A stretch of DNA of 64,000 bases from Perkinsus olseni. Lineage: Eukaryota; Perkinsozoa; Perkinsida; Perkinsidae. Below the pieces are notes generated by a model. The model was not told where the DNA came from and ran no database searches. It saw nothing but the letters and a program-made list of their open reading frames with translations. The position numbers and the translations under genes were made by a program. Of the stretch, positions 6,913 through 62,392 are shown in pieces (within the stretch, counting starts at the first letter, position 1; each line of letters begins with the position of its first letter). The stretch covers positions 186,001 through 250,000 of the forward strand of contig JABANP010000028.1 of assembly GCA_013115135.1 (NCBI GenBank). Reading direction: 5' to 3'.

Positions 6913-6954
6913 ATCGTGCGGGTTCGATTCCATAAAGTTCCCAAACAAGCATTG

Positions 6955-21661: not shown

Positions 21662-22662
21662 ATGTTCAACAATCGAACAATGTTTACACCCGTCTTGGTG
21701 ATTGCCTCTCTGTTGAACGTGGCAGAAGCATCCTCAAAGGGGAGCCTGCCGAGTCTAAGTCTCTCTTCTCTCTCCGACGACGCCTTCGAGTCGGACCGCG
21801 AAGGCACTCCATCTTCTTCATCACACTTTTTTCGACGAGGCTCGGCCGGGTAGACTTTATGGCCGCCTAAATCCCCCGAGAATTGTGTACGAGCCAGCGA
21901 GGCAAGGGGACGAAGAATGCGGTGTTCCTTACAAGCTCACCACTACAGGACATGAGCGCAGGTTCGTAGCGGCCATCGAGCCGAGTCTGCCTTTTCTGCC
22001 AAGAGTGAGTCGGGTAAACTGACCCAGTAGCGAGCGTCTGCTCTCGAGCCGACCGAACAGTCCCACGAGGTCCAGTCAAACTGGTTGCTCGCCAATACGT
22101 ACCTTATCACGAATCGTGATTCACGATCCTCCCAAGCCACAGTTACTCTCGTTCAGGAAGTGATCGGCCTGGTCGAGATGAGGGTCCCATACGAAGAACC
22201 GCGATACCAGGAAGTTATCTCGCTTATCAAGTCTGGGATGTAGCACGCGCTGGCGCCGCCCTATCTACTGATCCTCTCACCCACAGTGCGACTGCCCTCT
22301 TCCGTCGCCAGATGTTCTATTCAGGCGCGACACTCGACGGAATACAACACAAGTATGTTACATCGCGCACCTTTTCGTTGACGAGAGCTGGAAAGACGAC
22401 GGTGTGCGAGAGAAGCTGCTCGAGGAGGCCCTTGCTGATGTTAGGCTGAGCTCTGACAGCTTTGATGAGCTATTTTTCACTTCAGCTATGGCGCGAACGT
22501 CCTGAAGTGGCGGCTGCTTTCACCGTTGAAGATAGCGATGACGTAGATGCGATGATGCTTTACGTGGGGGCCGACTTCGCACGGCTGGAGGCAGCTCGAG
22601 GAAAGGTCAGGTTGCCCGTGCCTCGGTGGCATGAGCTCAGCTCGCCTCCCATCACCCTTTGA
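21662..22662 (+). CDS. Secreted GNAT-like acetyltransferase, diverged paralog 1
   Basis: Starts with a signal peptide (MFNNRTMFTPVLVIASLLNV, then AEA) and a Ser-rich linker. Further exons read RIVYEPARQGDEECGVPYKL, TLVQEVIGLVEMRVPYEEPR, CYIAHLFVDESWKDDGVREK with LLEEALADVRL, and AAAFTVEDSDDVDAMMLYVG ending near a stop at 22662. It aligns exon by exon with the next gene. The acetyl-CoA loop that reads RGIGVG in paralog 2 reads KDDGVR here, so pyrophosphate binding is probably lost. The intron around 22085-22145 holds a three-arm palindrome. It may be a pseudoenzyme. Exon joins are approximate. Confidence 0.58.
22106..22127. repeat. Three-arm alternating palindrome
   Basis: ATCACGA-A-TCGTGAT (22106-22120) overlaps ATCGTGA-T-TCACGAT (22113-22127). 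The shared middle arm can pair with either side. It lies in an intron of the GNAT-like gene. Confidence 0.85.
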
Positions 22663-23211
22663 AGTGTTCACCGACAGTCGTTCTGGCAGCACTGGTTCCT
22701 CATCTATGCTTCCCGAACAGGTACCGAAGAGCGCTGTGGTTTACGTCTACTACTTGTAGTCTTTGTCACCATGACTTCCTTTTGTTGTTCCCTCTGGTGT
22801 GTCATCATAGAGATGTGTCGTGTTCGGGCTTTCACTCGTGAACTCAGTACTCCCACTGCCTGTAAGGGTATCTTCACTCACGACGAGATCAAGCATGGCA
22901 GCAGATGTTTCAGGTCGACTTGAAACCTCGAAGCCTGAAGCTGATTGTGGGTGCGAGCTTGGACTTTATCGGCTTCATTTTCGCGTGCAACGAGGCATTG
23001 AAACTTGCAGTGGGTCGAAATAGGTATTCTGAACGATTAGAGTGACAGAGGTTGTTGATATTTGGCATGAAGAGCTCTCCGTGTGCTTGATGCTTAGCAT
23101 GAACCACCCATCACTGTCGGTCTGTTTGAGACGCATGTTTTCCACGATGAGTATGGGTCAATCGGACGAAACTCATCAGTGACCGTTCCAGTTCTTTTTC
23201 CGCCCCGCCTA

Positions 23212-24518
23212 ATGAGAGCACCGACTCTCACGATTGTCCTGTGCACTTGTATATGCGAAATTACTGCAAGGAAAGCGTTTCTACGAAGCTCGATCCGAAG
23301 GCCGGCCGACATGCTCTCCCGTTTTCTTCCTTCCTTTTCTTCTCGTCAGTCCGAAAAGGCTAGGATTAGGAACAGTAGACCCAAGCTGAAGTTTGAGAGT
23401 GCGCAAGAAGGCGACAGAATCCCTGGGCCCAAGTTAATGGAATTATTCAAACCTGATTACTCCTTCGTAGCCTCTTATGAAGCTAGAAGGTCGAAGTTGT
23501 CTCCAACAACGGGCTCCGAGCCTCTCGCAGCAGCCGGTGAAGGCCAGGATACGAGCAGGGTATGCTTGTGAGATCACACCATCCTCTGCCGAGCCTAGTA
23601 GAGGTGTTATGACCGAACTCACCGGAAAAAATGAAATGAAAAACTCTGTGAACTCACCGGCCAACGCTCTTTCCGGCTTAGGCTACAGCCGATGTGCTCA
23701 GTTTTCGGGGGGAAGGAGGCTACCGTTCGCCATAGTGAGAAGTCGAGCGACAGGATGTTCTCCTCTCAGAGAATCGCTGGAGGCGTCGAGTTTTTCATTC
23801 CGTATCCCGTGGGGACTGAAGAAGCTAAGCTCGTGATAGCCAACATGTAGCCGAGATTACAGTAGACACTTGTGCCAGTTCCACGTCTTCTAACTACCTC
23901 TGTGCTAGTCGGGCGTTGAGTCCCAAACCCTGCAACGCCTCTTTTTGTCGAGCGTTTCGTTTCTTCCTGTCAGCCCCAAGCCCAAAAGTTCTGACCCTCG
24001 CCTTTGCTACATCTCCTGGGTTTTCGTCGAAGGAAGCTGGCGCGGTATAGGTGTTGGGACGGAGTTGTTGGAGCAAGCTTTGGCGGACGTAAGCCCATGC
24101 CATAAAGAACGATTCTCTCCGGCTTCCATACCTTTATCCGTAACCGAATGACCTTTCCTGCATATTCGAGGCTGTAAGAGATTGAACCACCTTGCAGAAA
24201 CATATTGCATACATCTTATGTGAAGAAGTTTCCGCTCGACCAACGAGGATGGCATGTCTGAACTGTTCATGTCGCTGTCATTGTATGCTGTGAGCTCTTT
24301 AGGTGAAGGCTAAGTGGCCGGATATGACAGCGGCATTCTTATCTGTGGACGTGCGGGACACCGGCGCAGAAGCTCTGTATAGGAAGTTGAACTTCAAAGA
24401 GCTAGACTACCAGGTACCATATCGCTGCTCTACACATCAGGTGTATATATGTTTCAGTCCGATCCTCATAGCAAGCTATTCGCCTACTACTTCTAAACAG
24501 GAGTACAGTGCCGCGTAA
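23212..24518 (+). CDS. Secreted GNAT-family N-acetyltransferase, paralog 2
   Basis: Signal peptide MRAPTLTIVLCTCICEITAR at the start. A central exon has FKPDYSFVASYEARRS, then AGGVEFFIPYPVGTEEAKLV. The GNAT core is intact: CYISWVFVEGSWRGIGVGTE with LLEQALADV is motif A, including the R-G-x-G-x-G loop that binds acetyl-CoA. FLSVDVRDTGAEALYRKLNF is motif B with the usual N/D..A..LY.K..F pattern. GNAT enzymes move acetyl groups from acetyl-CoA to amines. A secreted or endomembrane location is odd for an acetyl-CoA enzyme and suggests import of acetyl-CoA into that compartment or a plastid-type leader. The tail after KELDYQ is uncertain. Confidence 0.7.
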
Positions 24519-25334
24519 CTGATATCTCTCCCTGATAACTCTCGGCGGTGTTAGTGACTCCTCCTCTTGAATTTATAGCCATGATGTCAATGTATTTGAT
24601 ATGACTGTTATTTTGAGAGGGCTCTCGAGTTGGATAAAGTGTACATCTCTCGTCCGCCAGGAGTCGGGTATAGCTGCCCGACTGCTTTGACGTTAGGGTG
24701 GAAGGATGATTCATACTCGGTTATGATACTTACGGCAATAGAAGCCATCGGCGACTACTCAAGAAGGCTCTCGACTGGAGTGGTCCCCACTAGGGACTTC
24801 CTAGCAGTTCACGATGTCTAACATAACTCATCTACCTCGTTCCCAGGAAGTTGGAGGCTCGAAGGCCGACATGAACCTAGAATCTATCGACATTCTCATC
24901 CCGTGCAGCTTCGATGATACCGATTCGCGAATGCATTAGACAGATGATGGGCCAAAATAGGCTCCATTAGATGCCTCAGTATGATGGCCCCCGTGATCTT
25001 ACCACTGTGTTAGGTATTTGATCACAAATACTACCCGTGGCTACGGTAGTTCCCGTTTCCGATTCACCAGGATGAAAGCAGCTAGCCTCATGATCATTCT
25101 TTGCACCGATCTCTCCGATGGCGTCGCGAACCTCCCTCGTGGAGACCCGGGCCAGTTCGCGTCCGAGAAAGCCAAAGCAGAGCCAGAGTTTTGAGAAGGC
25201 GCATGAAGGCGACCAGGCGACTTGGGAAGTTTTCTGTGTACGTCGTGCAGATAAGGGGACAGTAAGGAATTCGTGGAAGGCACATGTTCTATGCCCTCGC
25301 GCTGGCTACCTTGGCAATCTGTAATCGGCGATTC
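24519..25334. other. Interval with short frames only
   Basis: A plus-strand frame at 24630-24821 and overlapping frames at 25041-25324 on both strands are below 85 codons and show no recognised motif. Confidence 0.3.
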
Positions 25335-25655
25335 TTACCATTTCCGATTCGGAAATCGTATGCCAATGAAAGCGATCATCGGAATTTCCGGTTGTACTTC
25401 ATACAGCGGAGCATGCATTCCCGGTTGTAGCGTGTGAACTCCGGAACCCGTGGAGACGAAATAGCGGCAGAACTGCCACTGAGCGTCGAAGGACACATAA
25501 TCAGCGCTCGCAGCATGACGGATACATCTTAAGCTCAACGCATGGTCGCAACTATACACCAATATCAACAGCAAAAATGAAGTGAGAAGAGCAGTCACGA
25601 GATTACGTGAGCTCCTAGAGATGAGGAGAACCCGCTGATGGGCTACGCTACACAT
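25335..25655 (-). CDS. Small secreted protein candidate
   Basis: A 106-residue uninterrupted frame. After MCSVAHQRVLLISRSSRNLV comes a strongly hydrophobic TALLTSFLLLILVYS segment that fits a signal anchor or late signal peptide. The mature part reads YVSFDAQWQFCRYFVSTGSG and ends FIGIRFPNRKW. The end overlaps a perfect palindrome, ATTTCCGA-T-TCGGAAAT (25340-25356). It lies 25 bases from the next minus-strand frame. Family not recognised. Confidence 0.45.
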   Translation of the reverse strand: MCSVAHQRVLLISRSSRNLVTALLTSFLLLILVYSCDHALSLRCIRHAASADYVSFDAQWQFCRYFVSTGSGVHTLQPGMHAPLYEVQPEIPMIAFIGIRFPNRKW

Positions 25656-25679
25656 GCATTAGAGAACGCGAATATGATG

Positions 25680-26351: not shown

Positions 26352-26380
26352 CATAACCACACCGCGGCGGACTTGAGAGC

Positions 26381-32479: not shown

Positions 32480-34858
32480 TCACTTCCGAACGTAACCGGG
32501 CTTCTCTGCACACCTTGATCCAGTTGGTCCTGAAGAAAGACCAGTAATGGGCAAAACGAAGAGAGGCGGATAGTACTTGCAAATGATGAGGACCATGACT
32601 ATGACCGAACTGCCGTAGCCAGCGATCAAGCCAAGCCAGAGACCATAGACACCTCCATCGAGTTTAAGACCGTATATGTAAGAGATGGGGAAGCCCACGA
32701 CCCAACAGCAGACCGCAATGATGTTGGAAGATATCTTAGAGCGACCTTGATTGAGTAGAACTTGGAAGGCCGGAGTAAGGCACATCATAGCAGCTATTCC
32801 CACAGCCACATAGGGAGATAGACCCTTGAGAAGACTCTGGACTTCAGGGTCGTCGGAAGCCGCCTTAGCGAGGAAGGGCAACAGGGCCACGTACGCCGCA
32901 CCAAGGACGACGCCCGATGCCAGAGTGAGCTCGAGACCAACTTCTACCGTTCTCTTGGCATCTGCTATCCGGAATGACGAGATGGCGGCAGCCACACGTA
33001 CGCCGACGCCCTGGCCGATACCTGAAGACAAGCCGCGGGATAGCAGAATGAGGAGAGGTGAATGGTGGCAGGCGGCCTACCAGTAGAGAAGACAAAGAAA
33101 AGGTCCATGATAGAGAGGGAGAGGTTATGAGCAGCTATGACGACCGAGCCCATCTTAGCAGCCATGAAGCACAGCAGCTCGTACTGTATCTCCTCGGTGA
33201 GAGCACCCCAGGCTGCAGGTAGTGCTAGTCCGAGGAGAATCTTCCATCTCTTAGGGTTGGTCAGGGCCTTAGCGGTCCAGCCATCCCAGGTACGCTTATG
33301 ATAACCCTTCCATGCAAAGCAATAGAGGATGTACATAACGGTACGAAGGAACCTAGTTATGGTGGTGGCAATGGCAGCGCCAATGAGACCTAGTCCCATT
33401 GGGAAGGTCATCACGTAAGCCACTCCCAGGTTCACGACGACAGCCACATTGTCGATGATCATGGAGGGCTTGACTATCCCTTGCGCAGAGAGATAGGACC
33501 GGCAGGAGAAAAAGACCACATCACAGAGGATTGACAACTGGGAGTAGGTAGTGTACTCTCCGGCAAGATAAGCAAGGTTAGCGTCGAAGCCCATGAACTC
33601 CAAAAAGTCTGCAGTGAACCACCGCGTGACAATAACGGGAACACACATGAGGGTGAAGCAACACAGGCCCAGCTGGAACCACTCGCCGACCAGCGTGTAG
33701 TTACCTGATGAATGATAGGTCGACAGATGCGTTGCTCGCCGATCTACAGTGCTCCGAATTAATTTGGAATATAGTCTAAAAACTAAATTTCGCCTTAACC
33801 ACTCAGAGTTTGAACCTGATTCTTCAACACACTATCTGTTACCACGATATATGTACACTCTCCAAGAACTGTGACTGTGTATAGGGTGTCGCACTGTCAA
33901 GAAGAAAATTTACATACACCCGTCAACTGCTCCATCGAATTCCGCGCGCAACCTTTCGCAAATCTCATCCTCCTTGGGAATGAGCATCGTATTGACCCGA
34001 ACTTAACATCGTGCAAGGTTCGGCCTCCTTATCATCATAACATCGTGACGTACGCAAATTTCGGAACCCATATTAGTTCTATAGCGCGTGGCGTGGTATA
34101 GTGGCCTCAATTTCCCATGCGCCATAGTGTCCTCGTTTTACATGTGGCATTTTTTCGTTATTACAGACTGTATAGAGAAGCTCCTGGTCGGTCCGGTAGC
34201 GGCGGTACGAAGTCCCTCACTTACCAGCACCGAATGCCTGACTACATAAAGTGGATAATTGAATAACGGACTCGAGGACCATAACGTCGAATAGGAATGT
34301 CCAGATACCGGCAACACCACAGGCCGCTAGGTATCTAACGAGAGCAAGACAGAGGTGTGGCAAGTTGGTAGCCCGCCAGAGCGAGTTCAACACGGGCATT
34401 TTCTGACACTTCTAAAGTGAGTTCAACACGCCTATTTTCTGACACTTCTAAAGTGAGTTCAACACGCTTATTTTCTGACACTTCTAGCTCTGGTTTTCCC
34501 CGCTACTACTCTGTTCCCAAGTGGCCAAGGATGAATTGGTCCGTCATATCATGGAAATTACGTGCCGCTGAGGACAACGCGACGGGTATAGAGTAACTGA
34601 GGATCACATCAGTGATGAACCTAAGATACGCATCGGTAGTAGGGATTACCCGCAAAGAGTGCAAGCCTCGTCAAACCTAGACTTGCAAGATTTAGTGACT
34701 AAATTGTTAGCCAAGTCTTGTAACGTATGATGATGTTGGTGCCCCTTGGTTTCCTTCCTCCCCTTGGCTGCGGGTGGAAGGAGGGGCTTTCGTATACTAG
34801 GTTTGTCCGAGTCTTCACCGCCACTACTGCAGTCAGTACTGTCACAACTGCCGAACAT
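32480..34858 (-). CDS. MATE-family multidrug/metabolite exporter
   Basis: First exon MFGSCDSTDCSSGGEDSDKP is a hydrophilic cytosolic head. The membrane part includes LESVIQLSTLCSQAFGAG, the MATE signature near helix 2, then NYTLVGEWFQLGLCCFTLMC, YLAGEYTTYSQLSILCDVVF, SYLSAQGIVKPSMIIDNVAV, PMGLGLIGAAIATTITRFLR, WKILLGLALPAAWGALTEEI, and a second half with VRVAAAISSFRIADAKRTVE, LLNQGRSKISSNIIAVCCWV and LDGGVYGLWLGLIAGYGSSV. About twelve helices fit the family, which exports organic cations using H+ or Na+ gradients. One intron (about 33706-34223) is roughly 500 bases, ten times the usual length. A triplicated 36-base unit spans an acceptor (34383-34490). Confidence 0.92.
34383..34490. repeat. 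Three tandem 36-base units across a splice acceptor
   Basis: The units begin at 34383, 34419 and 34455, each opening GAGTTCAACACG and containing TTTTCTGACACTTCT. They differ at only a few bases. Read on the minus strand, each carries a copy of the acceptor (GAAGTGTCAG) and the start of the MATE exon that follows it, so the gene has up to three equivalent acceptor sites. Confidence 0.9.
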
Positions 34859-35428
34859 TGAGTGACTACTGGAGATGCTTCAAGAACTACAGTCAGAAGA
34901 AATAGCATTTCCGAGAGGACCAGCATACTCCGTCACACAATCACTCTCTGCCTGAGCGTTCGCCATCAAGTTACTAAGCTCTACAACTAACTCCGTTCGA
35001 TTGGCGGATATACCTGACGTGAAGGTATGCGACATGTACGGGGTTTTTATGTAGTTGGGGGACTATCATCAAATTTTTACTACGTAACGACTCCTGTCGG
35101 TCCTCAGTATCGGTGCTTTCAAGCCCCGATCACCCAATTTCAAGTAGTATAGACTACACAATGAAGCATGAACGAGCTTTGAAGGTAGGACTCAAGAATG
35201 TACAGGGAAGACAGCCGCGCCACGAAATCGTTGAGAGTGATGTTAATGAGAAAGAGACCTCGGACTCCGAGGCTCGGAGTACCGTCTGCTATGCTCGTCA
35301 CCTACTAAGGCTGCTCATTTTACTTTAGGGTCTATAGTATAAGAGTGCTAGTAGGGCTCCATCACATCGAACTGACGATGATGTGTAGGGTGAAAACGCG
35401 GGACAAATTTCGCTGTGACAGCGGAGCG

Positions 35429-39744: not shown

Positions 39745-40729
39745 GGGGTGGCCTCTGTCAGGCCTCGAAGCTGTGAATGCCCACTTTTTATCAGACTAGT
39801 GAGCATACCATTGGGAACATATCATTGTCGGCGAACATCTTACAGTCGAGCCAGTTTCACGCTACGATGAGGCGTATTGCTTTTATTGTTATTGTAGCAG
39901 TATCATTATCACTTGTCGGGGTGTGGTGAATAGCCACTGGCGAGGTAGCTCAATCGAACAGATGCAGACTGATAATGAGATAACAAAGATACTCCTTTTG
40001 CATCAACACTGAGACTCAGTGACTGAGAGGTTTTGATCGAAGAGCTGTTTTCGAAGGCCCTATGAGATTTTAATTCGGAAGTCACATCTCACCACGGACA
40101 TTCTCCGCGGACCTGCGAATTCTTACCACATCTGAACTTCCGTCGAAACAACACTCATATATTCACTCTTTCCACGCATTGATAACACTTTCTGGAGCTC
40201 GCGTTGTTCTGGGGTTACTAGACCTCAGTCTGAGGGTCGATTGACTATACACCCAACGCATTAGGGGGGGGGAAGGGTTAATAAATCTCCCATGTAAAAG
40301 TTCGGGCCTCTCTCACTACACCATCTCTACTCATCTATCATCCTAAGTCATTCGCTATTCGCATAAGAACGGCTCACGATCTCACATTCAAGCGGGATGG
40401 TGAAAATTCAGTTTAAGCAGAGCGTCGAGAAAGCATTTTAAGTGGTAGGCAATGGGTAATATAAAATCAATGAATGAAATCAAAGCTCTCGTCAAAGTTT
40501 CCGATGCGACTAAATCATCTCTGTGGGGTCTTGGCCAACTGCTGGCACAAATCGGGCCCGTAGGTAAATGGTTTGCCACAAGTGGAGTATCCCTGACTGA
40601 TAGGCGCAGGGTACAAGCAACGGGACCAGTGCCTGAACCACAGTCTATACGGACAAGAAATATTCTCCGCTTACCAATCGTGGATGCCGTAGCGCGACTC
40701 TGGCGTGTCCATGAGTGCATCGAACCTGA
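39745..40729. other. Interval with a three-arm palindrome and a possible frame
   Basis: Nothing conserved is recognised. A plus-strand frame from 40452 runs for 148 codons but is antisense to better supported exons. A run of eight G lies at 40265-40272. The palindrome at 40007-40027 is listed separately. Confidence 0.4.
40007..40027. repeat. Three-arm alternating palindrome
   Basis: CACTGAG-A-CTCAGTG (40007-40021) overlaps CTCAGT-G-ACTGAG (40015-40027). The middle arm is shared. Intergenic. Confidence 0.82.
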
Positions 40730-42250
40730 TCAGCTAGAGTGTGTTGAATTGACTTCAAACGAATCATACCTTCCTGGCGGCATCCACTTGGCTGATCTAG
40801 CTTGGGCGTCGAAGGCGTCGAATGTCTGCAACACGTTATCAATACCGAACTTGCTCTGCGCACAAAAAGATATTTCACCGCAGTACTCACCAACATAACC
40901 TAAGACAAACAGCATGAGAGTGGGCAAGCAACGCAGGGAGAACCTACAGGCACCTTCAACGAGTACTGATATCTTAGCACGAGGCGTGTAACCTGGGTTG
41001 AGGCACTGAATGCATTGCAGAGTCATGAACCATTTGAAGCGAGCGAGGAGATTGTTGCCTAAAGCAATAGATAAGGCTAGAGTAGAATGCAGGGACCAAC
41101 CTGCGTTGAGTTTCATGCTTGACTTGTCGTCCATATAAGAGCGGTATACCAGATACAAAGCACTGTCTGCATTATCCATGGTGAAACTATAGAAGAGCGA
41201 TTTGCCCATCACGCCGAGTGATGAGCTAACCTAGTAGTTCCAGAGTCTGGGAACCCTCCAACAACCTGTTGGATCTTGAAGTGCCCAGCAGGGAGGAAGC
41301 CTAGGTACTTCTTCTTATAAGCCCTGTGGGGAGAAGTGAACAAGAGACTGAGTCATCTGGGCGCTCACTGGAGCTTTGTCAGGCTGCTGGCCACCAAGGG
41401 GGCCATGCCTGCATTCTCGATGTCGAGGGATATGCCAAATGGCGCTACGGCCTGCAGGTCGGACTGCGACTGGGCTCTCAGCCAGGTGAACAATTCCTCG
41501 ATGAAATCGAGCTGACCAGGCGGCGGATGTGAAGAATTAGCGCTGCGACACCGTCACATAGCCACTCACCAGAGCCTTTTCGTTGTGAGTACCGAAATCG
41601 CCGTAGGTGAGGTAAAGAACGCCCTCTGGAAGGGAGCAGTCATCAACGACTCAGGTGCAAACGAACGCACTCACTCGAATGTCCTCGTACAGCTTTCATA
41701 AACGGCAAGATATGGCTTTTGTTTTGGAGAACACCCGGGTTGGCATCGTCACCAACTGAGAACCACACGTTGCCGAGGGGACTGATGCTCTTCACTGCAG
41801 GCATGTTGACGAATTTCTGAGAGGGTAGGGCTTTCGGGAAGGATGTAGGAAGGAGTGTACCAGAAAGTCGCTGTTGAGGTCAGTCCAAATATCTGCACCC
41901 CAGGTGTAGAAGCCCAGAGGGAAGGGAGAAGCAGCGTTCACGCCCATCAATGCCTGAAGGGGAGTCAACGGGAATCCACGCCTGAGGACTATCAGCGGGG
42001 GACTTGCGTGAAGACCGCCACTTAGTTACTTACCATCGTCGGGAGTATCACAAAGATGGCGACGAGATTGGCGAACAGATTACCACCAGACATTTGAGAG
42101 TACAGCACTACAAGTGAACGGTTGAGGCCCGGGCCCCGCTTGATGAGCACTGGAAGCCTGGCTCAATGGGGCCCTCTGTTAGAAGCACACTCACCTCAAT
42201 GCGTCGCATTGGATGCGACAACGTGGAATCGCCGAGGAGCATTTTCATAG
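40730..42250 (-). CDS. Protein with luminal domain and membrane helices, unknown
   Basis: Minus-strand exons in order read LIKRGPGLNRSLVVLYSQMS, GGNLFANLVAIFVILPTM, GVNAASPFPLGFYTWGADIW, FVNMPAVKSISPLGNVWFSV with GDDANPGVLQNKSHILPFMK, EGVLYLTYGDFGTHNEKAL, PPGQLDFIEELFTWLRAQSQ then VAPFGISLDIENAGMAPLVA, and AYKKKYLGFLPAGHFKIQQV. A final membrane-rich exon (41212-40730) has LHSTLALSIALGNNLLARFK and RCLPTLMLFVLGYVGEYCGE. The alternation of strands and helices and the phrase FGISLDIEN recall a glycoside-hydrolase barrel, but I cannot confirm catalytic residues. Splice sites such as GTAAGT and GTGAGT support the exons. The 5' end is unresolved. Confidence 0.5.
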
Positions 42251-42787
42251 GATAGTTCAATTATTGTGCGTAGGCAAGTAATGTGGGTTGACCGGAGGGA
42301 GATGTGTCGGACTTACTTGAGTCAACAGCTGCGGGACATTTGGGTACGCGTGCAAAGGTGCACGCAAGGACGCATGCACTCTCTTGCGTTAGGAGGCTCT
42401 TCTTCAACGCTCATTATGGACGCAGAAGGCCTCAGACTAAGGCACAACACATCGTGCGAGTATGAATTGGCCGCAGAACGTCCGGTGGTACCGTCCAAGG
42501 AAAGCGAGGTTGCAAACCTCTGTTCTCTATTCTTATAAGCTTTACGTGAGGCCCTCCAGACCTTGCTCGCCGACTCCCCCACTGCGTGCAGGATGAGATT
42601 ATCCCATTAGGATGCTCTCATACTTAGCGGAGACATCGCTGCTGAACGCGTCCTTGTTAGGGCTCTGGCAGCGTTCGACGTGAATGAGCTGTGCGTACGC
42701 ATGCGCACTTCTAGTCGATTTGTCTAAGTTTTGTGGGGCTCCTGGTCAAGGGGACTCCAGGAATGGAACCCAGTACTGAGGCGGAGG
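42251..42787. other. Intergenic interval before the palindromic region
   Basis: A plus-strand frame of 90 codons at 42266-42538 overlaps an 86-codon frame on the other strand; neither has a known motif. Confidence 0.3.
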
Positions 42788-42810
42788 AACAAGGCCCTTG
42801 TTACAAGGGC
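42788..42810. repeat. Three-arm alternating palindrome
   Basis: AACAAGG-C-CCTTGTT (42788-42802) overlaps GCCCTTGT-T-ACAAGGGC (42794-42810). It marks the left side of the dense palindromic region that continues to about 44.1 kb. Confidence 0.87.
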
Positions 42811-42944
42811 ACAGGGGAAGATTGATGGTGGGGACGGAATCCAACAGAATTGCACCCGTGAAACGCGTAAAACAGGTTCACGCTGAGGGTTTCGCGCATT
42901 GAACACGTATAACGCACAAATTCATAACTTTTATCTCGCGCTTA

Positions 42945-44280
42945 TTCAGCGGATAAACGAGTAGTTTATCTAGGTTAAAACCGGAGCGGAGAGATGCCGC
43001 GTTATATTGTGCGACTGTGCTTCTCACGCTAGCAACTTGCTAGCGCGTGGACTAGCTTGCTAGTAGCAAGCTGGTCCCCTGAGTCAGGGGCCCTGACTAC
43101 TGGCTCGAGTTATCAGAGGCTTGATAGCGGTTCGAGCAGACGGGCGTCGTCCTTCTGACGCTCTCATTTTTTCAGGATTCCTTTGTTCATACTTGGGCTC
43201 CTTGCGTGGTCCACGCAGCGTGGACGGTCTTAGAGCATTGCGGTCCTGCGTGGCGCGCCTCGTGGGCTGCTGTCTGACTGCGTCGGTATTCAGGGTTGCG
43301 CGTGGAACTACCCGTATGAGTGTGATCCGCCGTGACTCTTATCGTGAGCAGTCAGTGCTTAGCACCGGTCATTCTCCGGTCTTTCCCGGGGCCCTTCAAC
43401 TGGCCCGGGGACACGCTGTTCACGCTTCACGCACGTGGCGTCTTCAGTAGCCTCGTTGCGTCGGCAACTCGAGGCCCTTACTCGTCTTGTCGTGCCCTCT
43501 CTCATTGGAGGCTTTGATAAGCCTGGTCCCTCACTCAGTCGAGGACTGGTTCCGCCACCCGCTTCTAACCGGGGGCCCGGTGGGTAGCGTCAGTCCGCAT
43601 CCTTTTATCAATCTTGGGTTGCCTAGTCGTGCACGGTCGTCTCTCGGTTTGGGCTTCCGCTTCACCCCGGGCTCTGCCCTCGGGGATGGCATATTTAGTG
43701 GGCTTCATCCCATTCCTCGGTCTCCGATGCGTGGCAAGGTTGGGCTTGCCGAATCACCAAACTTGTGCCTGCCGAACCGCGATTGCCACTCGCAGCATCG
43801 CCTTCGGCCAAGGCACAGTTTGCCTTCGCGTCACCCTTGCTGCCGTCGTAAGGTCCTGCCGACCTTACCGACGCTAGCGCGATGCCGCACCTTGCCCCAT
43901 CTCGGAGACCAGAGGTTTCATCCCGGCGTTCAACGGCATAGCGAGCTGTAACGAGTCCCAAACAAAATTGCGCCAGAAAAAAACGCGTTCAACACAACGC
44001 GTTGCGGCGGCATACACTTTTTCCTCCGCTGTCGCTTATTCCTTCGACCTCCTGTTTCCCTAACAGGCAGCCTGTTACAGGCTGCTATTGGCTTATGGTG
44101 GATCTCGCGATACCCGGGTTGTGTAGAACGGATTCCGTTCAACAGAAGCATTCCATGCGTCACGACAAACACAACGTGTCAGTGGCGCGGCGTCCTAGGG
44201 CGAAAATTTGGCAATAACCACGTGGACTCGTAGGACGATATGTGAACCGCGTTATATCAACGCCAAGCATAATGTTACGC
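42945..44280. repeat. Palindrome-packed repeat element, copy 1
   Basis: The left 56 bases (from ATTCAGCGGATAAACGAG) recur at 63848-63904 in the same orientation. Inside the element lie many perfect inverted repeats, among them GATAAAC/GTTTATC around GAGTA (42952-42970), CGCTAGCAA-C-TTGCTAGCG (43027-43045), AGCTTGCT-AGT-AGCAAGCT (43054-43072), a three-arm unit at 43076-43097, another at 43204-43223, GTAAGGTC/GACCTTAC (43848-43868), a three-arm unit at 44061-44085 and GAACGGA-T-TCCGTTC (44126-44140). Open frames of up to 154 codons on both strands are Arg/Ser/Pro-rich and show no domain, as expected from GC-rich non-coding DNA. The right boundary is not defined. It could be a non-autonomous mobile element or encode structured RNA. 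Confidence 0.65.
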
Positions 44281-45440
44281 ACTAAACGCGAAACCTGTGA
44301 TGGCTTCTACACAGCAACGCCGGCGGTTCCGATCCACGCTAGCAGGCAGTAGTCTAGACTCAGAAGCGAGACGAAGATTAACACGCCAGTGACTTGGAGT
44401 TACCATGGAAACCCAATGGGTTTGACCCATATAAGTAGATTGTATGAGAATGTGCTTTGACGTGCACAAAGGGAGAGTGCGTGTGTGACAGGTTCACTAT
44501 CTGCTTTGCATCAGCATTACACGCCTGCCGGCGTATCGCCAATACTACGACCAATGCGCTCAGGGGTTGTAGCCAGTGGCAGTGTCATCCCTCAATCCCA
44601 AAAAGGGACAGTACGCGACAAAAAATGATCAAAAGTGTAATGCGAAGTTTTAAGCAATTACGAGAATAGAACCCGAAGTAGAAGGACTGTCCTTCAAGGG
44701 CATCCCCTTTCATCTACGAGCACCCAAGCAGCCAACGTGCCACTCTAACATCATCGGAGGCAGCTAGTTATCGTAACGACTTGTACTCGACAACGTGTAG
44801 ACAAAAAGGGGGCATAGTAGGAGGGAAGGGGACAGAGCGAATGTGCACTGTCACCCAGACTCCACCCACTGGGTGTCAAGTATAGCTTTGGGTTAACACT
44901 TCCATGAAACGTATCTTGCGCGATAAATGGCGCACGCCACAGGATTTGGGAGTGTCCCATGGGATCGTTAAAAACTTTACGGCATACCTCCGTGGCGTCA
45001 TCTACACCTGATGGTCATGGCAGTTCAAGTCTGCTGCACTCGGCCAGGTGTGACCTAGTAGCGTTCACCCCCTCTACTTGGCCATAGTACTTTTCTTGTT
45101 GTCACCCGTCGCTGCTCGGAAGCAATGGAAGGACATTATTGTCGAGGTTGCATTCTAGGGAGCATCCTTGGTACTTTTCAACAGCAATATCATCGTCACC
45201 TGGACGTATCGGTATCATCACCCTGACGGTAGCGGCGACCAGTATCCTCGAGTCGGGGTGTGGAGTCTCGCTCACTTGTGAGTATCAACGCATGTTGTGT
45301 TTTGAATGGGATTCAAGAAGTAGTTGCAGCAGGACCCTTCATCAGTGAGACTGTCCGGGCATCAAGCGAACGTGAAATGAGTAAGATTGATGGGGCATTT
45401 TTCCGAGCATGATTTGCAGTGGCGTTTGGTTGCCTGAACG
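44281..45440. other. Interval without a supported gene
   Basis: Short frames only. It may include the promoter and first exons of the large plus-strand gene that follows. Confidence 0.3.
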
Positions 45441-52420: not shown

Positions 52421-52623
52421 GTGGACTGTTTCCAATACGTACCTCCGACATCGGTTTTGTTAGTCATTCGGGTTAATGGGAGGGCCGTTTGCCGTGGTGA
52501 TGAAGGAGATTCTATGTCGTGAAGGAATCTTCCCGGGCATCGACCCCGATGTCCTCCGCACGGTGGATGTGCCCTCTTTCGTCTGAGCTACGTCTTCGTT
52601 TTCGGATGCTTCGAATGGGATGA

Positions 52624-54186
<1,563 letters not shown>

Positions 54187-56800: not shown

Positions 56801-56804
56801 CATC

Positions 56805-58844
56805 ATGCGAGCTCGTGAGCCCCGGCTGCACTCACGCCTGCGATCAGGTGAATGGTCACCGTTACTGTGTGCCGGAGTATGGTCAGCATGTCGTCGGTAT
56901 TTGCATTGATGGCTGCTGTCCGGAGTACCTCAAATCTGCCAAGTTCCATATGCCCAACTTGTACCAGAAGATGCTGGCTAAGTATCGCTCTTTCCTCCGC
57001 ATCGCCTGATGGCATATTCACCTGTTCATGGCGTGACTTCCCCTGGCAGGCCTAGTGGGCACCTTAGCATCGTCCGGAGTGCTATGCCGACTCTGACGAA
57101 TCCTAACAACATGTCGATCGTTACTGGTGTCTCGCCGGCCCATCACGGCATCTCCGGTAACTACTACCTAGACGCAAGCACCGGCGAGGAAGTAAGCCGA
57201 TATACTTCTAGTATCATTAACCTGTGCGAGAGCAGGTGATGATGACTCAGCCGGAACTGCTACTTTGTCCAACCATATTCCCGGAGTTCCTCAATGCGCC
57301 GGACACCGTCGTTGTGATCTTAACGGTTAAGCACAAGGTACCCGGGCGACGTTGGTGGTGTCCGTCGGCGACGACCGTTCTCAGCTCTTGAGCATGCTCA
57401 CCGCTGGCTTGCCGTCCGATACCCAGGGGCGTTGGATTGGCCTCTCAGCAGAACGAGCGGATGATGAGACATCTTCTTCGGCATTGGCAAAGTACACTGG
57501 ATGAAGCGAGTATCCTCCCGATGCCTGCCGCTACCCTTGGCGCTAATTCTTTGCTTTTGTGAAGCCCTCGGTGGCCTGGTGTACCGAAATGGTCCCTCAA
57601 AAACTGGTGCCAGGTTCTCCAACGGGGAAATGGGATCATTCAGAGACTTGTCGAACGAGTGGCTGCAAGTCCCGAGTGTTTACTCGGCAGAATCGTCCCT
57701 CTTCATGCTCGACCTTGGTGTTGGTCTCCTTGATTTCATAAGCCGGACACAGCCAGAGAAGCGTGTTTTGGCATACTTCTCGACGACGGACTACGTGAGT
57801 TGTGCCTCGTGAGGCTAGGACAAGGGGAGTGCCGTCGGTCCGACCTGAATCAGAGCGCTCGGTTCAGGTTCAGCATAAGCATGCACCATTCGACTACGAG
57901 GCGGTGACGTTCTACAAAGAGCTCGACAAACGTCTCGGGGCCCTACACGACCGTGGGGCTGCGGTCGGCATTACTGCTGATCACGGCATGAGTGACAAGG
58001 TATAGACCCTACAGAAGGCGGCTTATTGCCGGCCTATCCATGTCGTTATATACTTGAGGCTGGGTGTCTTCCATTGCTTGGTCCGGGTCCAGGCCAGGCA
58101 CTCTTGAACATCCTATTTCAGACCGAGCAGGAGACAGGCCTTCAGCCTAATGTGGTTTACATCGAATCTGCACTGGCTGCTCTCGGGATTGCTGGCGGCA
58201 GGTGTATTCTGCCGATAACGGATCCCTATGTAGGGACGCAAAAGGCGCCTGTGCCTGTTGGGACTCGCCTCTTCGATATGAAGGTTCGTCACCACGGCGC
58301 GCTGGGGGGATATGCAGTTGTGTACGTCCCTTCCGAGTCCCTCGAGTGTTGCCGAAGCGTGCTGGAAGATCTGGGGAAGTCCGATACCACACCTTTCACG
58401 GTAAGCATGCCTGCACTTACATCAGTAGCTTCGCATTGCGGCGCATTTCGGAAGCTTGACCGCTCCCCATTCGGATCGCTATCCGTAGCAGGTTTACCGA
58501 CGTGAGGTTGCAGCAGATTTATTAGAGCTTCCAGCCGATCGACTCGGCGACTTCGTACTTGACGGAGGTCAGAGAACCGTCTTTGGGAAAACCCCGGAGT
58601 TTCACGATCTTACGCAGGTCTGTCGATCCCGTCCACGACGAGTGTATGTAGCTCAGCCGCTTATTAGGTACCCAAATTGCGTTCCCATGGTTCTAGCTGC
58701 GAGCAGCTTGTCCCGTTAATCATCAACAGGTCCGTGAGCCCGGAGGGTAGAGCTCGTCTGGAGTCTGGGGACGGCCGAAACTTCGACCTTTTCCGCATCT
58801 TACTCGATGATTCGGTACACGCGACCAGTTTGAGTAAATCATGA
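56805..58844 (+). CDS. Phosphonoacetate hydrolase (alkaline phosphatase superfamily)
   Basis: Joined exons give the whole enzyme: QHVVGICIDGCCPEYLKSAK (first metal Asp), FHMPNLYQKMLAKY, AMPTLTNPNNMSIVTGVSPA with the nucleophile Thr, HHGISGNYYLDASTGEEV, MMTQPELLLCPTIFPEF, VVSVGDDRSQLLSMLTAGLP, AYFSTTDY joined to VQHKHAPFDYEAV (Asp and His ligands), GAAVGITADHGMSDK (Asp-His pair), NVVYIESALAALGIAGGRCI, HHGALGGYAVVYVPSESLEC, LELPADRLGDFVLDGGQRTV, SHGSSCEQLVPLIINRSVSP with the last His, and a tail ending SVHATSLSKS. All zinc ligands and the nucleophile are present. The family splits phosphonoacetate into acetate and phosphate, giving access to phosphonate phosphorus. The exact start is uncertain; 56805 is the nearest ATG but its frame needs an unplaced intron. 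Confidence 0.9.
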
Positions 58845-58918
58845 TATTCGTAGGGAACTCTTTGCGTTAACACTCTCGGGAAGCCTCGTCGTGAGCATTT
58901 AGTTTTCTGGGTTCTTCC

Positions 58919-59257
58919 ATGATGAATGAACAGCCGGCAGATGGCCGGAGTCTCATCAGCATCGAGCGCATGACTGACTCGACCATGATAGATGTCCGTG
59001 ACATCCCAGCAATGCTACAGGATGCTGGTTGCACCATCGATATGCTACCCGAGGAGTGCCGCGGTGTTCCTCAATTTCTCGCCCGTGTCAAAGTTGAGTC
59101 CCTAGACGCCATCAAAATACAGATAGTCGACACTAGCGAAGCAACGGTACCGACAAGAACGCTGCAGAAATTCCTGCTAGCGGCCGCAGACCAGCTGGGT
59201 GACATCAAAGTCATTTGTGAGGGCAATGCGGAATGCTCCCTCGCCGCTTCCAGTTGA
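58919..59257 (+). CDS. Unrecognised 112-residue protein, single exon
   Basis: An uninterrupted frame starts MMNEQPADGRSLISIERMTD and continues MIDVRDIPAMLQDAGCTIDM, LARVKVESLDAIKIQIVDTS, LQKFLLAAADQLGDIKVICE. It begins 75 bases after the hydrolase stop on the same strand. Acidic, soluble, no signal peptide. No family recognised. Confidence 0.5.
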   Translation: MMNEQPADGRSLISIERMTDSTMIDVRDIPAMLQDAGCTIDMLPEECRGVPQFLARVKVESLDAIKIQIVDTSEATVPTRTLQKFLLAAADQLGDIKVICEGNAECSLAASS

Positions 59258-60186
59258 GAATGGCTGGCTGCCATGCATAAGGCAGCAACACCACATCCGA
59301 AGACAGGTCTTCCGTATTTTGTTTGGACACTTACATTCACTTTCGTAGCGTGCTGAGTTCTAAGGGGAGGGGCGACCGGAATAGCCTGATAGCTTGGCAA
59401 GCTGAGCTTGTTAGTATTCTACTGACCGCAGTGTTGGCTTTCTCGTATCTCCCGAGGCTATGTATATTCCTGATCGGCGCCTCAGCGAGATCTACGATAC
59501 TCTGTGAAGACCTACTCTTCGAGCTCAGTTGGAAGCTACACGGCTGTACCTGGGATATTTCGTTATTAGGAGGTAACACTGTGTCTCCGTACGAACGCTT
59601 CATACAAACGTGTCGATGTGGAGACGGTGGGGGACTGTCACTGGCAATCTGTCATCTACCCAACTTTAGCGGTGACACAACGTTGAGACGACCATTTGGC
59701 CTCTTTCGGAATCCGAGACTCGGACCCTAACACAATCCACTCTTGTTGGAATGTTAGTAGGCTTTTAGTGACCGACCAGTGCTTCTATGAAGTAGACAAG
59801 TGTCGCAAAGGAAAAGAGCAATATCAGAACTTCACAGGGAGCCTCAGGCACTAGCATTGGTCATGTCGGATGTGAGGACACAGAGATGTCTTAACCATCA
59901 ACAAACTCTCTCAATCAGAAAGTGTGTACCTTCTCTGAGTCTTCTCATAGCAATCATCGCTCATCATGAGTTGAGGAGTATTAATGACAACGACCGTTTT
60001 ACAATGCACCGCTGTAATATGTCGCATTAGGAGTCAACTGAGTATAAAAACTTCTTATTAAAAAGTATGATTGGTGGTACTGGTGAATCTGAGTGGCCCA
60101 CTGGAGTACGGAAGAACCAGTGAAAACCCACCAGAAATCGTCGAGACTTAGAACGCGTATCGTGTAACCTAGCTCGGCCTTTAACG
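59258..60186. other. Interval without a confident gene
   Basis: A plus-strand frame of 135 codons (59323-59730) has hydrophobic and Cys-rich parts but starts without ATG and shows no known motif. A minus-strand frame overlaps it. The 3' side is the downstream flank of the secreted protein at 60187. Confidence 0.3.
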
Positions 60187-60597
60187 CTAAGGACAGTCTC
60201 CTGAGTTCAAAGTTACCAGATTCCCTTCAAACTTGACCGTCACGGTATTGGCTTTGTAGTCATACTCGAACGACTTCAAATCTCCATCTTCGACGCCATA
60301 AGGGCATTCAACATCTACCATTGATATGAAGTTATCGTAGGCCTGGGCACTGTTCGTAGCAACTTGGTAGTAGAATGGATGAACTCTTACCACGGATAGG
60401 TCAGCGGATGTCACATCGTGGCCTATACAGTCAACAAGTAGTCTCACATCAGCAGCTTCACCAGGGAGAAAGTCAACTTGGATGCAATCCGTCGGCTCGA
60501 AGACGATCGTGGAATACTTCCCGCTCGGCGGTGCAGGGCGTTGGGCTACTGACTGGAGCATCACTGGGATGACGCAGAGCAAGAAGGAGGCCCACAT
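60187..60597 (-). CDS. Secreted protein, paralog of the 62488 gene
   Basis: A 136-residue single-exon frame with signal peptide MWASFLLCVIPVMLQSVAQR. The mature part opens PPSGKYSTIVFEPTDCIQVD, then LLVDCIGHDVTSADLSV, YYQVATNSAQAYDNFIS, VECPYGVEDGDLKSFEYDYK, and ends VKFEGNLVTLNSGDCP. The four Cys in DC, DC, ECPY and GDCP are matched in the paralog, so two disulfides are likely. No known domain. The beta-rich pattern suggests a small extracellular binding protein. Confidence 0.72.
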   Translation of the reverse strand: MWASFLLCVIPVMLQSVAQRPAPPSGKYSTIVFEPTDCIQVDFLPGEAADVRLLVDCIGHDVTSADLSVVRVHPFYYQVATNSAQAYDNFISMVDVECPYGVEDGDLKSFEYDYKANTVTVKFEGNLVTLNSGDCP

Positions 60598-61002
60598 ATT
60601 AGCAAGTTACATTCTAAACCTCATACACATGTTCAGGGTTGTACGAGATAACTCACGACTGTAGTTGACCATCAATGACTGATTATCGATTGACTATCAA
60701 TGACACAATGCATTGGAATTGACAGTTGAGCCTTCACGCTGAGAGTAGAAAAAGCAACTCTAGTAGCCGCGTACTCTGAATATCTTCCAAGCTTTTGAGT
60801 TGCTGGTCTGCAGCTCGCTTAGCGAAATGGCCATTCCTACAGGATCGGCTCCACCATTCTTTCGGGAACCATGTCTCTCCCTGGACACAGCATGGAGCTG
60901 CTTTAGGTGGGGTTTCTGTTTCCTTCTAAATCGAACCGGGGATTCCTCAGCCCGCATCCATGAGATGCTCAGGGGTCAAAACGGTGGTAGAAAGCGCTCC
61001 GA
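60598..61002. other. Interval upstream of the secreted protein gene
   Basis: A plus-strand frame at 60800-61084 overlaps it and may hold an exon of the gene that ends at 61203. No motif recognised. Confidence 0.3.
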
Positions 61003-61203
61003 ATGCAGGAAAAGCATATACGGAAGAGGCTTGAGAGTTTGTCGCGGGACTTCGCCCCGCTTTTTAGAGCCCTTCTCACTTTGATCCCTGAGCCTTCAAC
61101 GAAGTTGCGGCGGCATTACGACGTCAAGCTGGACGCCGAGCAGCGCGTTCGTCCCAGGCTCAAACCCCGGGTTAAGTACGAACTCCAACGCATATGGCCA
61201 TAA
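61003..61203 (+). CDS. Basic C-terminal exon, unidentified
   Basis: The frame reads KHIRKRLESLSRDFAPLFRA, LLTLIPEPSTKLRRHYDVKL and ends RPRLKPRVKYELQRIWP at a stop. Strongly basic, with helix-forming segments, so RNA-binding or organellar-ribosome association is possible but unproved. It is probably the last exon of a gene starting near 60.8 kb. Confidence 0.4.
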   Translation: MQEKHIRKRLESLSRDFAPLFRALLTLIPEPSTKLRRHYDVKLDAEQRVRPRLKPRVKYELQRIWP

Positions 61204-61652
61204 TCCGAGGCACGGTACAAGACCCAAGGTTGTGTCCCTGGGGACAGCTCAGGGCGAGCGAAGATGCTTCCTTGGCTTCTAGCTCTGGCGCCCCGAGCTC
61301 CCGTCCGCTAGTCAAAGCATGAGCCTAGCCACTGAGATTTTGCGCCGAACAGGATACCAGGTCACATAGGTTTGTCTTCACAAACTGGTTCGACTCTAGT
61401 CTTTGTCACAAGTCTTTCGCTCTCTTCAATTGACTGTTTGATACCGTCTGTATCTGCGACACTCCGACTACTTTCGGCCCGATTGTTGCCCAGAAGATAG
61501 CGGGAGATTGCGAACCCCAGTGGGCATGATCCTGCGAGGATCAGCTTCACAGGTTTCCCCGAAGCCATTTCCACGGTTCTCCATTTATAGAAAGCCTCGC
61601 TTGACTCCGCACTCGGCAAGGGCCAAATTGGCCACATATTGGCCCGGGCAAC
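61204..61652. other. Interval without a supported gene
   Basis: Short overlapping frames on both strands. A short palindrome, TGTCCCTGGGGACA, lies near 61234. Nothing else supported. Confidence 0.3.
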
Positions 61653-61886
61653 ATGACGGAAGCTATTTGCATCAATGTAATCCCAAAAATACGGGAGTGC
61701 GGAAAGGAAAATATCAACCTTGGACCTCCGAGAACCTTCGTAGTTCTGGATGGCACTCGTGCGGGTTCCAGTGCTACCAATATCTCCGCAGGAGCGAACC
61801 CATCACTGGTTGAGCTGGACCGAGTCGCAACCAGCCTTCTGCGGCTAGATGCACTTGTGGCGCGCAATCGCTGCCAAAGCAGCTGA
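61653..61886 (+). CDS. Possible 77-residue protein
   Basis: An ATG-started frame reads MTEAICINVIPKIRECGKEN, GPPRTFVVLDGTRAGSSATN and LVELDRVATSLLRLDALVAR. Composition is protein-like. A longer minus-strand frame overlaps it, so the strand is uncertain. Confidence 0.3.
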   Translation: MTEAICINVIPKIRECGKENINLGPPRTFVVLDGTRAGSSATNISAGANPSLVELDRVATSLLRLDALVARNRCQSS

Positions 61887-61960
61887 GGTCAGTGGCCTCG
61901 CCAGCATTGCATGTAGCTGGAATTCACAAAGACGATTCGCCTTTATGAAGCTTACCAAGC

Positions 61961-62392
61961 CCCTCCAGTGGAGGGCCTCCGTAGGGTTTCTGCCCCGTAC
62001 GGACGCCCTCCGGCCTTGGTGATTCGCAGCAATCGGCTACGAGTTCACGCCGAGCTGCTCGGGTAAGTACGGAGTCCGTACTACCGTAGTACTACTGCGG
62101 ATTCGCAACCCAACACGAGAGTCATCTTGAAAAGGTAATTACCAAAGGTAGTATTCATTTCGTTGTGCTAGTGACACGGTACGACTAATAACCGCGGACT
62201 CGCGAAGGCCCTTCGCCGAAGGGGGCCAACATCGCCAAGTACTGGGGAACAGGCGATACTGCAGCACCACTGGGCATCACGCAGTCGGATCGGTCATGTA
62301 GGCCACAGAAGCACTGTGGTATTCTGTGATCATGACGGGGAATGAGGATTGAATGATGATGTCTAACTAATGAAAAGCCTCGTTATGAGGCT
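61961..62392. repeat. Palindrome cluster with three-arm units
   Basis: Perfect inverted repeats: CCCTCCA-G-TGGAGGG (61961-61975); AGTACGGA-G-TCCGTACT (62066-62082) overlapping GTACTAC-C-GTAGTAC (62078-62092); GCGAAGG-C-CCTTCGC (62202-62216) overlapping CCCTTCG-C-CGAAGGG (62209-62223); CCACAG/CTGTGG (62303-62319); AGCCTC/GAGGCT (62376-62392). An imperfect 13-base inverted repeat (GAGGGCCTCCGTA against TACGGACGCCCTC) encloses the stretch near 61971-62015. No open frame of note. Confidence 0.85.

What the first reader, a model, noticed from the sequence alone, without database searches (positions are those of the whole stretch)
22106..62223. A family of three-arm alternating palindromes with one-base centres
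Seen: at 22106-22127, 40007-40027, 42788-42810, 43076-43097, 43204-43223, 44061-44085 and 62202-62223 a short arm is followed by one base, its exact complement, one base (or none) and the first arm again, so the middle arm can pair left or right. Arm sequences differ at every locus while the architecture stays. By simple arithmetic, a perfect 7+1+7 palindrome is expected about 64000/4^7, or four times, in the window, and two overlapping ones almost never (about 64000/4^14). I found over twenty and at least six overlapping pairs by eye. Inference: either an unknown process creates them (for example template switching at hairpins, which writes arm-complement-arm) or the bistable structure is selected. 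Palindromes packed into Volvox organelle DNA are the nearest known parallel. All loci are non-coding.
Basis: partly seen in the sequence, partly recalled or inferred. Interest (0 to 1): 0.88.

Follow-up and report, generated by a model that had tools for sequence, protein, structure and literature searches.

The report
Uniform scars of excised hAT-like transposons
The odd triple palindromes are most likely the healed wounds left where jumping genes cut themselves out of the DNA of a clam parasite (Perkinsus olseni), and they are regular and common enough to record a large number of lost transposons.

Summary
Perfect 7+1+7 palindromes occur 41 times in the window against 4.2 in shuffles, with no excess for even centres; two centres 7 nt apart with >=12 of 14 pairs occur 26 times against 0.35, far above any other spacing. 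The DNA is nuclear, from Perkinsus olseni or a very close relative. The unit is 22 nt: abcdefg + reverse complement of abcdefgh + bcdefgh. At all 12 of the sites where a related copy is exactly 14 nt shorter, that copy has the predicted single 8-mer without mismatch; two scars in the window are verified likewise. An 8-bp target-site duplication whose flanks were capped by hairpins with a one-nucleotide apex gives exactly this product, the signature of hAT transposon excision. The genome has hAT transposase genes, five of them inside elements flanked by 8-bp duplications, one with empty sites elsewhere. So these are excision scars, not template-switch products or selected structures. New are the stereotyped form and the density: about 0.1 perfect and 0.25-0.4 recognisable per kb, by extrapolation some 6,000 and 15,000-25,000 per genome. 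No site was seen both occupied and scarred.

The parts
22106..22127 (.). 22-nt excision scar, target site ATCACGAT (14/14 pairs)
35258..35279 (.).
40007..40028 (.). 22-nt scar, target site CACTGAGT (13/14)
42197..42218 (.). 22-nt scar, target site CAATGCGA (13/14)
42788..42809 (.). 22-nt scar, target site AACAAGGG (14/14); also present, with one substitution, in two other copies of the locus (contigs C258, C278), so probably older than the duplication
43029..43070 (.). long scar, target site CTAGCAAG: centres 43036 and 43063, 27 nt apart, 42 nt in place of 8; palindromic tracts of 9 nt (left) and 14 nt (right) against the C258 flank
43076..43097 (.). 22-nt scar, target site CCCCTGAC (14/14); C258 and C278 have the single 8-mer
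43203..43224 (.). 22-nt scar, target site TGCGTGGA (14/14)
44062..44083 (.). 22-nt scar, target site AACAGGCT (14/14)
44126..44147 (.). 22-nt scar, target site GAACGGAA (13/14)
44409..44430 (.). 22-nt scar, target site AAACCCAT (13/14)
44681..44702 (.). 22-nt scar, target site GAAGGACA (13/14)
62078..62099 (.). probable 22-nt scar, target site GTACTACG (13/14)
62202..62223 (.). 22-nt scar, target site GCGAAGGG (14/14)
4585..4606 (.). 22-nt scar, target site CACCAAAC (13/14)
6897..6918 (.). probable 22-nt scar, target site GCATTGTG (13/14)
6824..6881 (.). long scar by the same rule: centres 6831 and 6874 both give target site TGCCATTC (8 of 8); no empty copy was sought
61961..61982 (.). probable decayed scar, target site CCCTCCAC (12/14); one of eleven registers at 12/14, the other ten not listed here

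Best explanation
Each unit is the scar of a cut-and-paste DNA transposon of the hAT kind. The element had inserted with an 8-bp target-site duplication, abcdefgh-[element]-abcdefgh. On excision the transposase nicked one nucleotide into the flank at each end, and the free 3' end attacked the other strand, so both flanks were closed by hairpins whose apex is one unpaired base: h' on the left, a' on the right. The hairpins were opened at least 8 nt from the apex, giving 3' overhangs abcdefg-h'g'f'e'd'c'b'a' and its counterpart. The two overhangs end in the two strands of the target site, so they anneal over 8 bp; filling in and ligation give abcdefg-h'g'f'e'd'c'b'a'-bcdefgh, i.e. 22 nt, 14 more than the empty site, with two one-base centres 7 nt apart. 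Shown: the 22-nt structure, its fixed geometry, the 8-bp state in related copies, hAT transposase genes and elements with 8-bp duplications. Inferred from established hAT chemistry: hairpins, opening and annealing. Not shown: which enzymes open and join, and any site both occupied and scarred.
For: (1) Spacing 7 of one-base centres stands out in every sample: 26 vs 0.35 at >=12 of 14 in the window; 156 vs 0.6, and 77 perfect vs 0.0, in 177 kb around hAT genes; 7 registers vs 0.05 in 20 kb from nine large contigs. (2) 12 of 12 sites at which a related copy is shorter by exactly 14 nt show the predicted 8-mer without mismatch. (3) Of 24 insertions of 10 nt or more between related copies (55 of 4 nt or more), 11 are of exactly 14 nt, 10 of them three-arm units. 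(4) In the window a 48-nt difference from C258 equals a long scar (+34) plus a 22-nt scar (+14), and the palindrome rule names both empty sites. (5) 21 matches to the hAT dimerisation domain; five of these lie inside elements with inverted ends and 8-bp duplications (coordinates); the L036 element encodes a DUF4371/Dimer_Tnp_hAT protein and its site is empty, with a single TAGGGCTT, in C456 and C323. (6) The sites read from scars favour T at position 2 and A at position 7; Hermes prefers nTnnnnAn (passages of PMC6900584 and PMC2803484). Genome-wide the scar pattern for GTCNNGAC occurs at 26 places, that for CAGNNCTG at 0, a mis-spaced control at 0. [quoted passage not shown] cerevisiae and microhomology in 88-89% there (passages of PMC5873905).
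Against: Direction rests mostly on the model: a 14-nt deletion between the two 6-nt direct repeats of a scar would also leave the 8-mer; only one site (L045 449, absent from L042 and, with a 13-nt difference, L034) has the scar in one of three copies. Of 52 sites with a spanning relative, 32 were only shared at equal length and 8 differed in other ways. In the 177 kb around hAT genes other spacings (7-20 against about 0.2-1.2 at >=12) and even centres (25-29 perfect against 10-12) are also raised, though far less than spacing 7 and centre 1 (269 vs 12.0). Ten of the 41 window palindromes stay unassigned. Few elements are known for so many scars, although one search gives a lower bound and short non-autonomous elements were not counted. 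The target preference is weak in 77 perfect scars (p 0.023 and 0.007), and five element duplications are too few to compare.
Confidence: 0.92

Rival explanations
1. A hAT-derived cutting machine (domesticated transposase) makes hairpin-capped breaks at many genomic 8-mers without an inserted element, or removes elements in a programmed way, and repair writes the same scar.
For: Scars by extrapolation vastly outnumber the hAT matches found (21, a lower bound). Domesticated hAT proteins that cut host DNA and form flank hairpins exist: Kat1 of Kluyveromyces lactis (passages of PMC4763223).
Against: The inverted 8-mer in the middle needs a copy of the target site on each side of the break, which an insertion provides and a simple cut does not. 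Elements with 8-bp duplications, one with empty sites, exist.
Confidence: 0.05
2. Template switching or snap-back copying at replication forks or breaks writes arm-complement-arm.
For: It can produce short perfect palindromes with arbitrary arms (general knowledge); the moderate excess of other spacings and even centres around hAT genes leaves room for a minority of such events.
Against: It predicts variable arm lengths, centres and spacings; here centre 1 and spacing 7 dominate, and 11 of 24 insertions of 10 nt or more between copies are of exactly 14 nt.
Confidence: 0.02
3. Another transposon superfamily with 8-bp duplications (Merlin, P, KDZ) made them.
For: Merlin has been reported from alveolates (start of the abstract of PMC8101967, seen in the listings).
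Against: No Merlin-type transposase (PF12762) was found in this genome. Flank hairpins are described for hAT elements and V(D)J recombination (passages of PMC6900584). P and KDZ were not searched for.
Confidence: 0.04
4. Selected bistable DNA or RNA structures, or assembly artefacts.
For: None found; raw reads and other strains could not be examined.
Against: Arm sequences are unrelated and units of all degrees of decay occur (26 at >=12 but 7 at 14 of 14 in the window). The 42788 unit is carried by three different contigs, and alternative states differ cleanly by 14 nt.
Confidence: 0.01

Closest known systems
Excision footprints of maize Ac/Ds in yeast, Candida and plants (passages of PMC5873905, and PMC1978519)
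   Same: Palindromic P-nucleotides centred on the complement of the base next to the element; hairpins on the flank; microhomology joins; arms up to 20 nt in S. cerevisiae.
   Different: There the footprints are mixed (28 kinds among 128 Candida revertants, with P-nucleotide insertions of at most 3 nt); here one 22-nt form with the whole 8-bp target site inverted in the middle predominates, in a natural genome and at many loci.
Hermes and other hAT elements (passages of PMC2803484, PMC6900584, PMC3499496)
   Same: 8-bp target-site duplication and nTnnnnAn preference (Hermes), hairpin on the flanking DNA.
   Different: Here the scars are abundant and few elements were found.
Transposon excision sites in rice (passages of PMC4423477)
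   Same: Scars recognised by comparing related genomic loci.
   Different: Rice excisions are irregular (8 of 94 perfect; deletions and fillers); here the commonest product is stereotyped.
V(D)J coding joints / RAG and Transib
   Same: Hairpin-capped flanks and P-nucleotides.
   Different: RAG cleaves at the exact boundary (passages of PMC6900584) and the Transib duplication is 5 bp (recalled); that would give even centres and another spacing, not what predominates here.

Membership tests
hAT excision footprint | 8-bp target-site duplication at the site | tested here: met
   Scar minus 14 nt leaves the predicted 8-mer in 12 of 12 such comparisons; five elements with 8-bp duplications contain a hAT domain match
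hAT excision footprint | palindromes centred on the complement of the base that bordered the element | tested here: met
   One-base centres predominate; centre bases are the complements of h and a of the empty site
hAT excision footprint | target preference nTnnnnAn (as in Hermes) | tested here: met
   T 0.39 at position 2 (symmetrised) of 77 perfect scars, p 0.007; control 8-mers flat. A weak preference, not a rule
hAT excision footprint | hAT transposases in the same genome | tested here: met
   21 PF05699 matches, 21 of 21 over the cut-off; DUF4371 plus hAT dimerisation domain in the L036 element
hAT excision footprint | an element seen at the same site in a relative | tested here: inconclusive
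   Flanks of four of the five elements searched. L036: empty copies. L034: the 2 of 5 copies read differ by 11 nt beside the site. L038 and L035: copies found but not readable
Merlin | DDE_Tnp_IS1595 transposase present | tested here: not met
   0 matches to PF12762 in the genome
Volvox-type organelle palindromes | organelle genome | tested here: not met
   Window is part of a contig of >=250 kb of a 61.5-Mb assembly, with tRNA genes and RRM and MatE gene fragments
Template-switch mutation | variable arm and loop lengths | tested here: not met
   Centre 1 and spacing 7 dominate

The most novel reading that the evidence does not exclude
Perkinsus runs, or ran, a hAT-type cutting machine at genome scale, perhaps programmed as in DNA elimination, with one dedicated repair route: hairpins opened beyond 8 nt and joined through the inverted target site. 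Many thousands of scars of identical form remain, few elements do, and excision repair is the main source of new insertions of 10-50 nt in this genome.
Probability: 0.08. Interest if true: 0.9.

Novelty: new variant of a known kind. Interest (0 to 1): 0.62.

Why it matters
Excision can leave ragged, hard-to-read scars (as in rice), so the history of cut-and-paste transposons that left no copies is largely invisible. Here the predominant scar has one form and spells out the original 8-bp target, so thousands of lost insertions could be counted, dated by decay and tested for target preference, in a lineage near dinoflagellates and apicomplexans. The uniform product also says something about how these cells open and join hairpin-capped breaks. 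A simple scan (two one-base palindromes 7 apart) would find such scars in any assembly, and other spacings should reveal hairpin-type scars of elements with other duplication lengths.

Tried and rejected
Even centres and other spacings, including 4 (expected for 5-bp duplications), show no comparable peak, though in the sample around hAT genes they lie above shuffles. A 440-nt element in L032 with a 5-bp duplication (CAATG), whose ends resemble a repeat at window 42942-43013 (51 matches to window 42700-43300, itself included), was considered as the source and set aside for its 5-bp duplication. Merlin not found. Introner elements of Amoebophrya were considered and set aside: 8-20 nt inverted repeats within introns and 3-5 nt direct repeats at their borders (passages of PMC7789003). 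A solved-structure relative of the L036 transposase was sought without result. Classical end-joining is not simply absent: one Ku match of E 4.7e-5; no further repair genes were tested. C323 at the L036 locus carries CTCAGAGC, the empty site predicted for the scar at L036 3683, but without a length difference, so I do not count it.

Literature: searches list no paper in the held library whose title or abstract start reports these units in Perkinsus; I read listings there, and passages only of PMC5873905, PMC3499496, PMC7789003, PMC1978519, PMC4763223, PMC6900584, PMC4423477 and PMC2803484. A search for Hermes with GTNNNNAC gave nothing. Yu et al. 2004 is not held; Lazarow 2012 and Huefner 2011 are known to me only through PMC5873905. 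The one-nucleotide offset of the first Hermes nick is recalled; for Kat1 the passages give cleavage mostly 1 nt from the start of the inverted repeat.
Full report
WHAT WAS CHECKED. The seven loci of the finding are present as described. Scoring 7 pairs per centre gave 41 perfect 7+1+7 palindromes against 4.2 in 20 dinucleotide shuffles, no excess for centres 0 and 2, and a smaller excess for centre 3 (20 vs 5.0), which a mismatch beside the centre would produce. Scoring two centres together, spacing 7 stands out: 26 registers at >=12 of 14 pairs against 0.35, 7 perfect against 0.0; other spacings from 1 to 30 reach at most 5 at >=12. Two pairs of the 26 registers overlap (4578/4585 and 6573/6580), so they are 24 places.

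WHERE IT IS. The window is C201:186001-250000 of a 61.5-Mb, 968-contig assembly. A MatE fragment is 99% identical over 84% of its length to a Perkinsus olseni protein, so this is P. olseni or very close. The unit is general: in 177 kb taken around 20 hAT transposase matches there are 77 perfect registers against 0.0 and 156 at >=12 against 0.6; in the same sample other spacings (7-20 at >=12) and even centres (25-29 perfect against 10-12) are also above shuffles, but far less than spacing 7 and centre 1 (269 vs 12.0). In 20 pieces of 1 kb taken at round coordinates from nine large contigs, 7 registers at >=12 occur against 0.05, at five places. The window and these pieces give about 0.1 perfect and 0.25-0.4 recognisable units per kb, i.e. 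about 6,000 and 15,000-25,000 in 61.5 Mb. These are extrapolations from 84 kb, not counts.

THE ANATOMY. Two one-base palindromes 7 apart force the form abcdefg-h'g'f'e'd'c'b'a'-bcdefgh (prime = complement): an 8-mer lacking its last base, the whole 8-mer inverted, and the 8-mer lacking its first base. This suggests an 8-bp target-site duplication whose two flanks had been capped by hairpins with a one-nucleotide apex, and it predicts that an unaffected copy of the locus has just abcdefgh, 14 nt shorter.

THE TEST. I compared 189 registers (>=12 of 14; window, 20 loci around hAT genes, 20 one-kb pieces) with the other sequence held. 52 had a relative spanning both flanks: 32 shared the unit at equal length only, 12 had a relative shorter by exactly 14 nt, and 8 differed otherwise. 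In all 12 the predicted 8-mer was there without mismatch (alignments). Between related copies, 55 insertions of 4 nt or more were found, 24 of them of 10 nt or more; 11 of these 24 were of exactly 14 nt and 10 of the 11 were three-arm units. Two scars lie in the window itself: contigs C258 and C278 (95% and 87% identical) are each 48 nt shorter between two anchors at window 43009 and 43096. The palindrome rule gives the sites CTAGCAAG (centres 27 apart, so +34) and CCCCTGAC (+14), together 48; C258 has exactly CTAGCAAG and CCCCTGAC, C278 has CTAGCAAA and CCCCTGAC. The long scar has palindromic tracts of 9 and 14 nt measured against the C258 flank, so one hairpin was opened at least 14 nt from its tip. 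A second long scar, centres 6831 and 6874, obeys the same rule with 8 of 8, without an empty copy for comparison. Counting units at >=11 of 14 (28) and these long scars (2 more), 30 of the 41 perfect palindromes are assigned; one is a tRNA anticodon arm; ten are unassigned, where about four are expected by chance.

Polarity. Losing 14 nt between the two 6-nt direct repeats of a scar would also leave the 8-mer. The site L045 449 is scarred in one of three copies: L042 lacks it by 14 nt and L034, the most distant, by 13 nt, both with the 8-mer. That favours gain; the other comparisons are between two copies or two groups and do not decide.

THE AGENT. The genome has 21 matches to the hAT dimerisation domain, a lower bound; several copies are 97-99.8% identical. 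Five of the matches lie inside elements with inverted ends and 8-bp duplications: L036 3731-6405 (TAGGGCTT), L038 4690-7365 (CCTGATTC), L034 2609-4752 (TCCTGACT), L035 2523-5482 (GCGGTCGG) and L033 4009-5439 (GTCCGGAG) (coordinates). The scan for such elements found 5 with 8-bp duplications against 2 in shuffles, so without the domain match it would be weak; one of its five (L043) has no hAT match inside and is not counted, and L036 came from the pairwise comparison. The L036 element codes for a DUF4371 plus Dimer_Tnp_hAT protein; C456 and C323 have a single TAGGGCTT at its site, C737 a diverged one. No Merlin transposase was found. The 8-mers read from scars prefer C/G, T, Y at positions 1-3 and the mirror at 6-8 (118 sites; 77 perfect ones: p 0.023 at positions 1/8, 0.007 at 2/7, 0.12 at 3/6; control 8-mers flat). 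Hermes prefers nTnnnnAn. A genome-wide pattern for scars of GTCNNGAC gave 26 places, 25 of which also pair at the free positions; the backward pattern, which is the scar of CAGNNCTG, gave 0, and a mis-spaced control 0. The 26 fall into six sequence classes, and 11 share one, so some may be copies of a repeat that carries a scar.

MECHANISM. hAT transposases form hairpins on the flanking DNA (passages of PMC6900584; Kat1), and Ac/Ds footprints carry palindromes centred on the complement of the base next to the element (passages of PMC5873905). I infer that here both hairpins are usually opened at least 8 nt from the tip, and that the overhangs, which end in the two strands of the duplicated target, anneal over 8 bp. 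A longer overhang would be trimmed as a flap, so the product is fixed by the target site and not by where the hairpin is opened; this would explain why one form predominates. Long scars are then joins by some other short match. The nuclease and polymerase are unknown; one weak Ku match exists. I hold the transposon origin at about 0.92 and this particular repair route at about 0.75.

WHAT IS NEW. The kind (hAT excision footprint) is known. The stereotyped inverted-target form and its density in a natural genome did not turn up in the listings of my searches. In rice 8 of 94 excisions were perfect and the rest irregular (passages of PMC4423477); in Candida 28 kinds of Ds footprint were seen among 128 revertants.

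LIMITS. No site was read both occupied and scarred: the copies of the L038 and L035 sites could not be fetched. The sample around hAT genes is biased by design. Shuffles keep dinucleotides only. Whether scars avoid exons was not settled. Raw reads and other strains were not available.

Noticed in passing
L079 528-563: A 36-nt chain of four one-base centres 7 apart (6, 7, 7 and 5 of 7 pairs): as expected if the same 8-mer was hit and healed twice (8 to 22 to 36 nt).
   Followed up: partly
window 53532-53548: A perfect 8+1+8 palindrome that is the anticodon arm of a tRNA-Thr(AGT) gene at 53501-53575, a false positive of the palindrome scan.
   Followed up: yes
window 42942-43013: Part of a dispersed repeat (51 matches to window 42700-43300 including itself, many of about 70 nt) that resembles the end of a 440-nt insertion in L032 with a 5-bp duplication (CAATG): another element family.
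   Followed up: partly
window 34383-34486: The only tandem repeat reported at the default score: 2.9 copies of a 36-nt unit.
   Followed up: no
L040 6811-6854: Two 22-nt scars (13/14 each) lie back to back with different target sites.
   Followed up: no
L029 2195-2257, L016 1270-1316, L028 1784-1828: Near-perfect palindromes of 45-63 nt near hAT genes, possibly scars with long hairpin tracts.
   Followed up: no
L046 8073 versus L048: A full scar in one copy and, 8 nt shorter, what looks like only its right half (one 7+1+7 palindrome) in the other, suggesting one-sided forms.
   Followed up: partly
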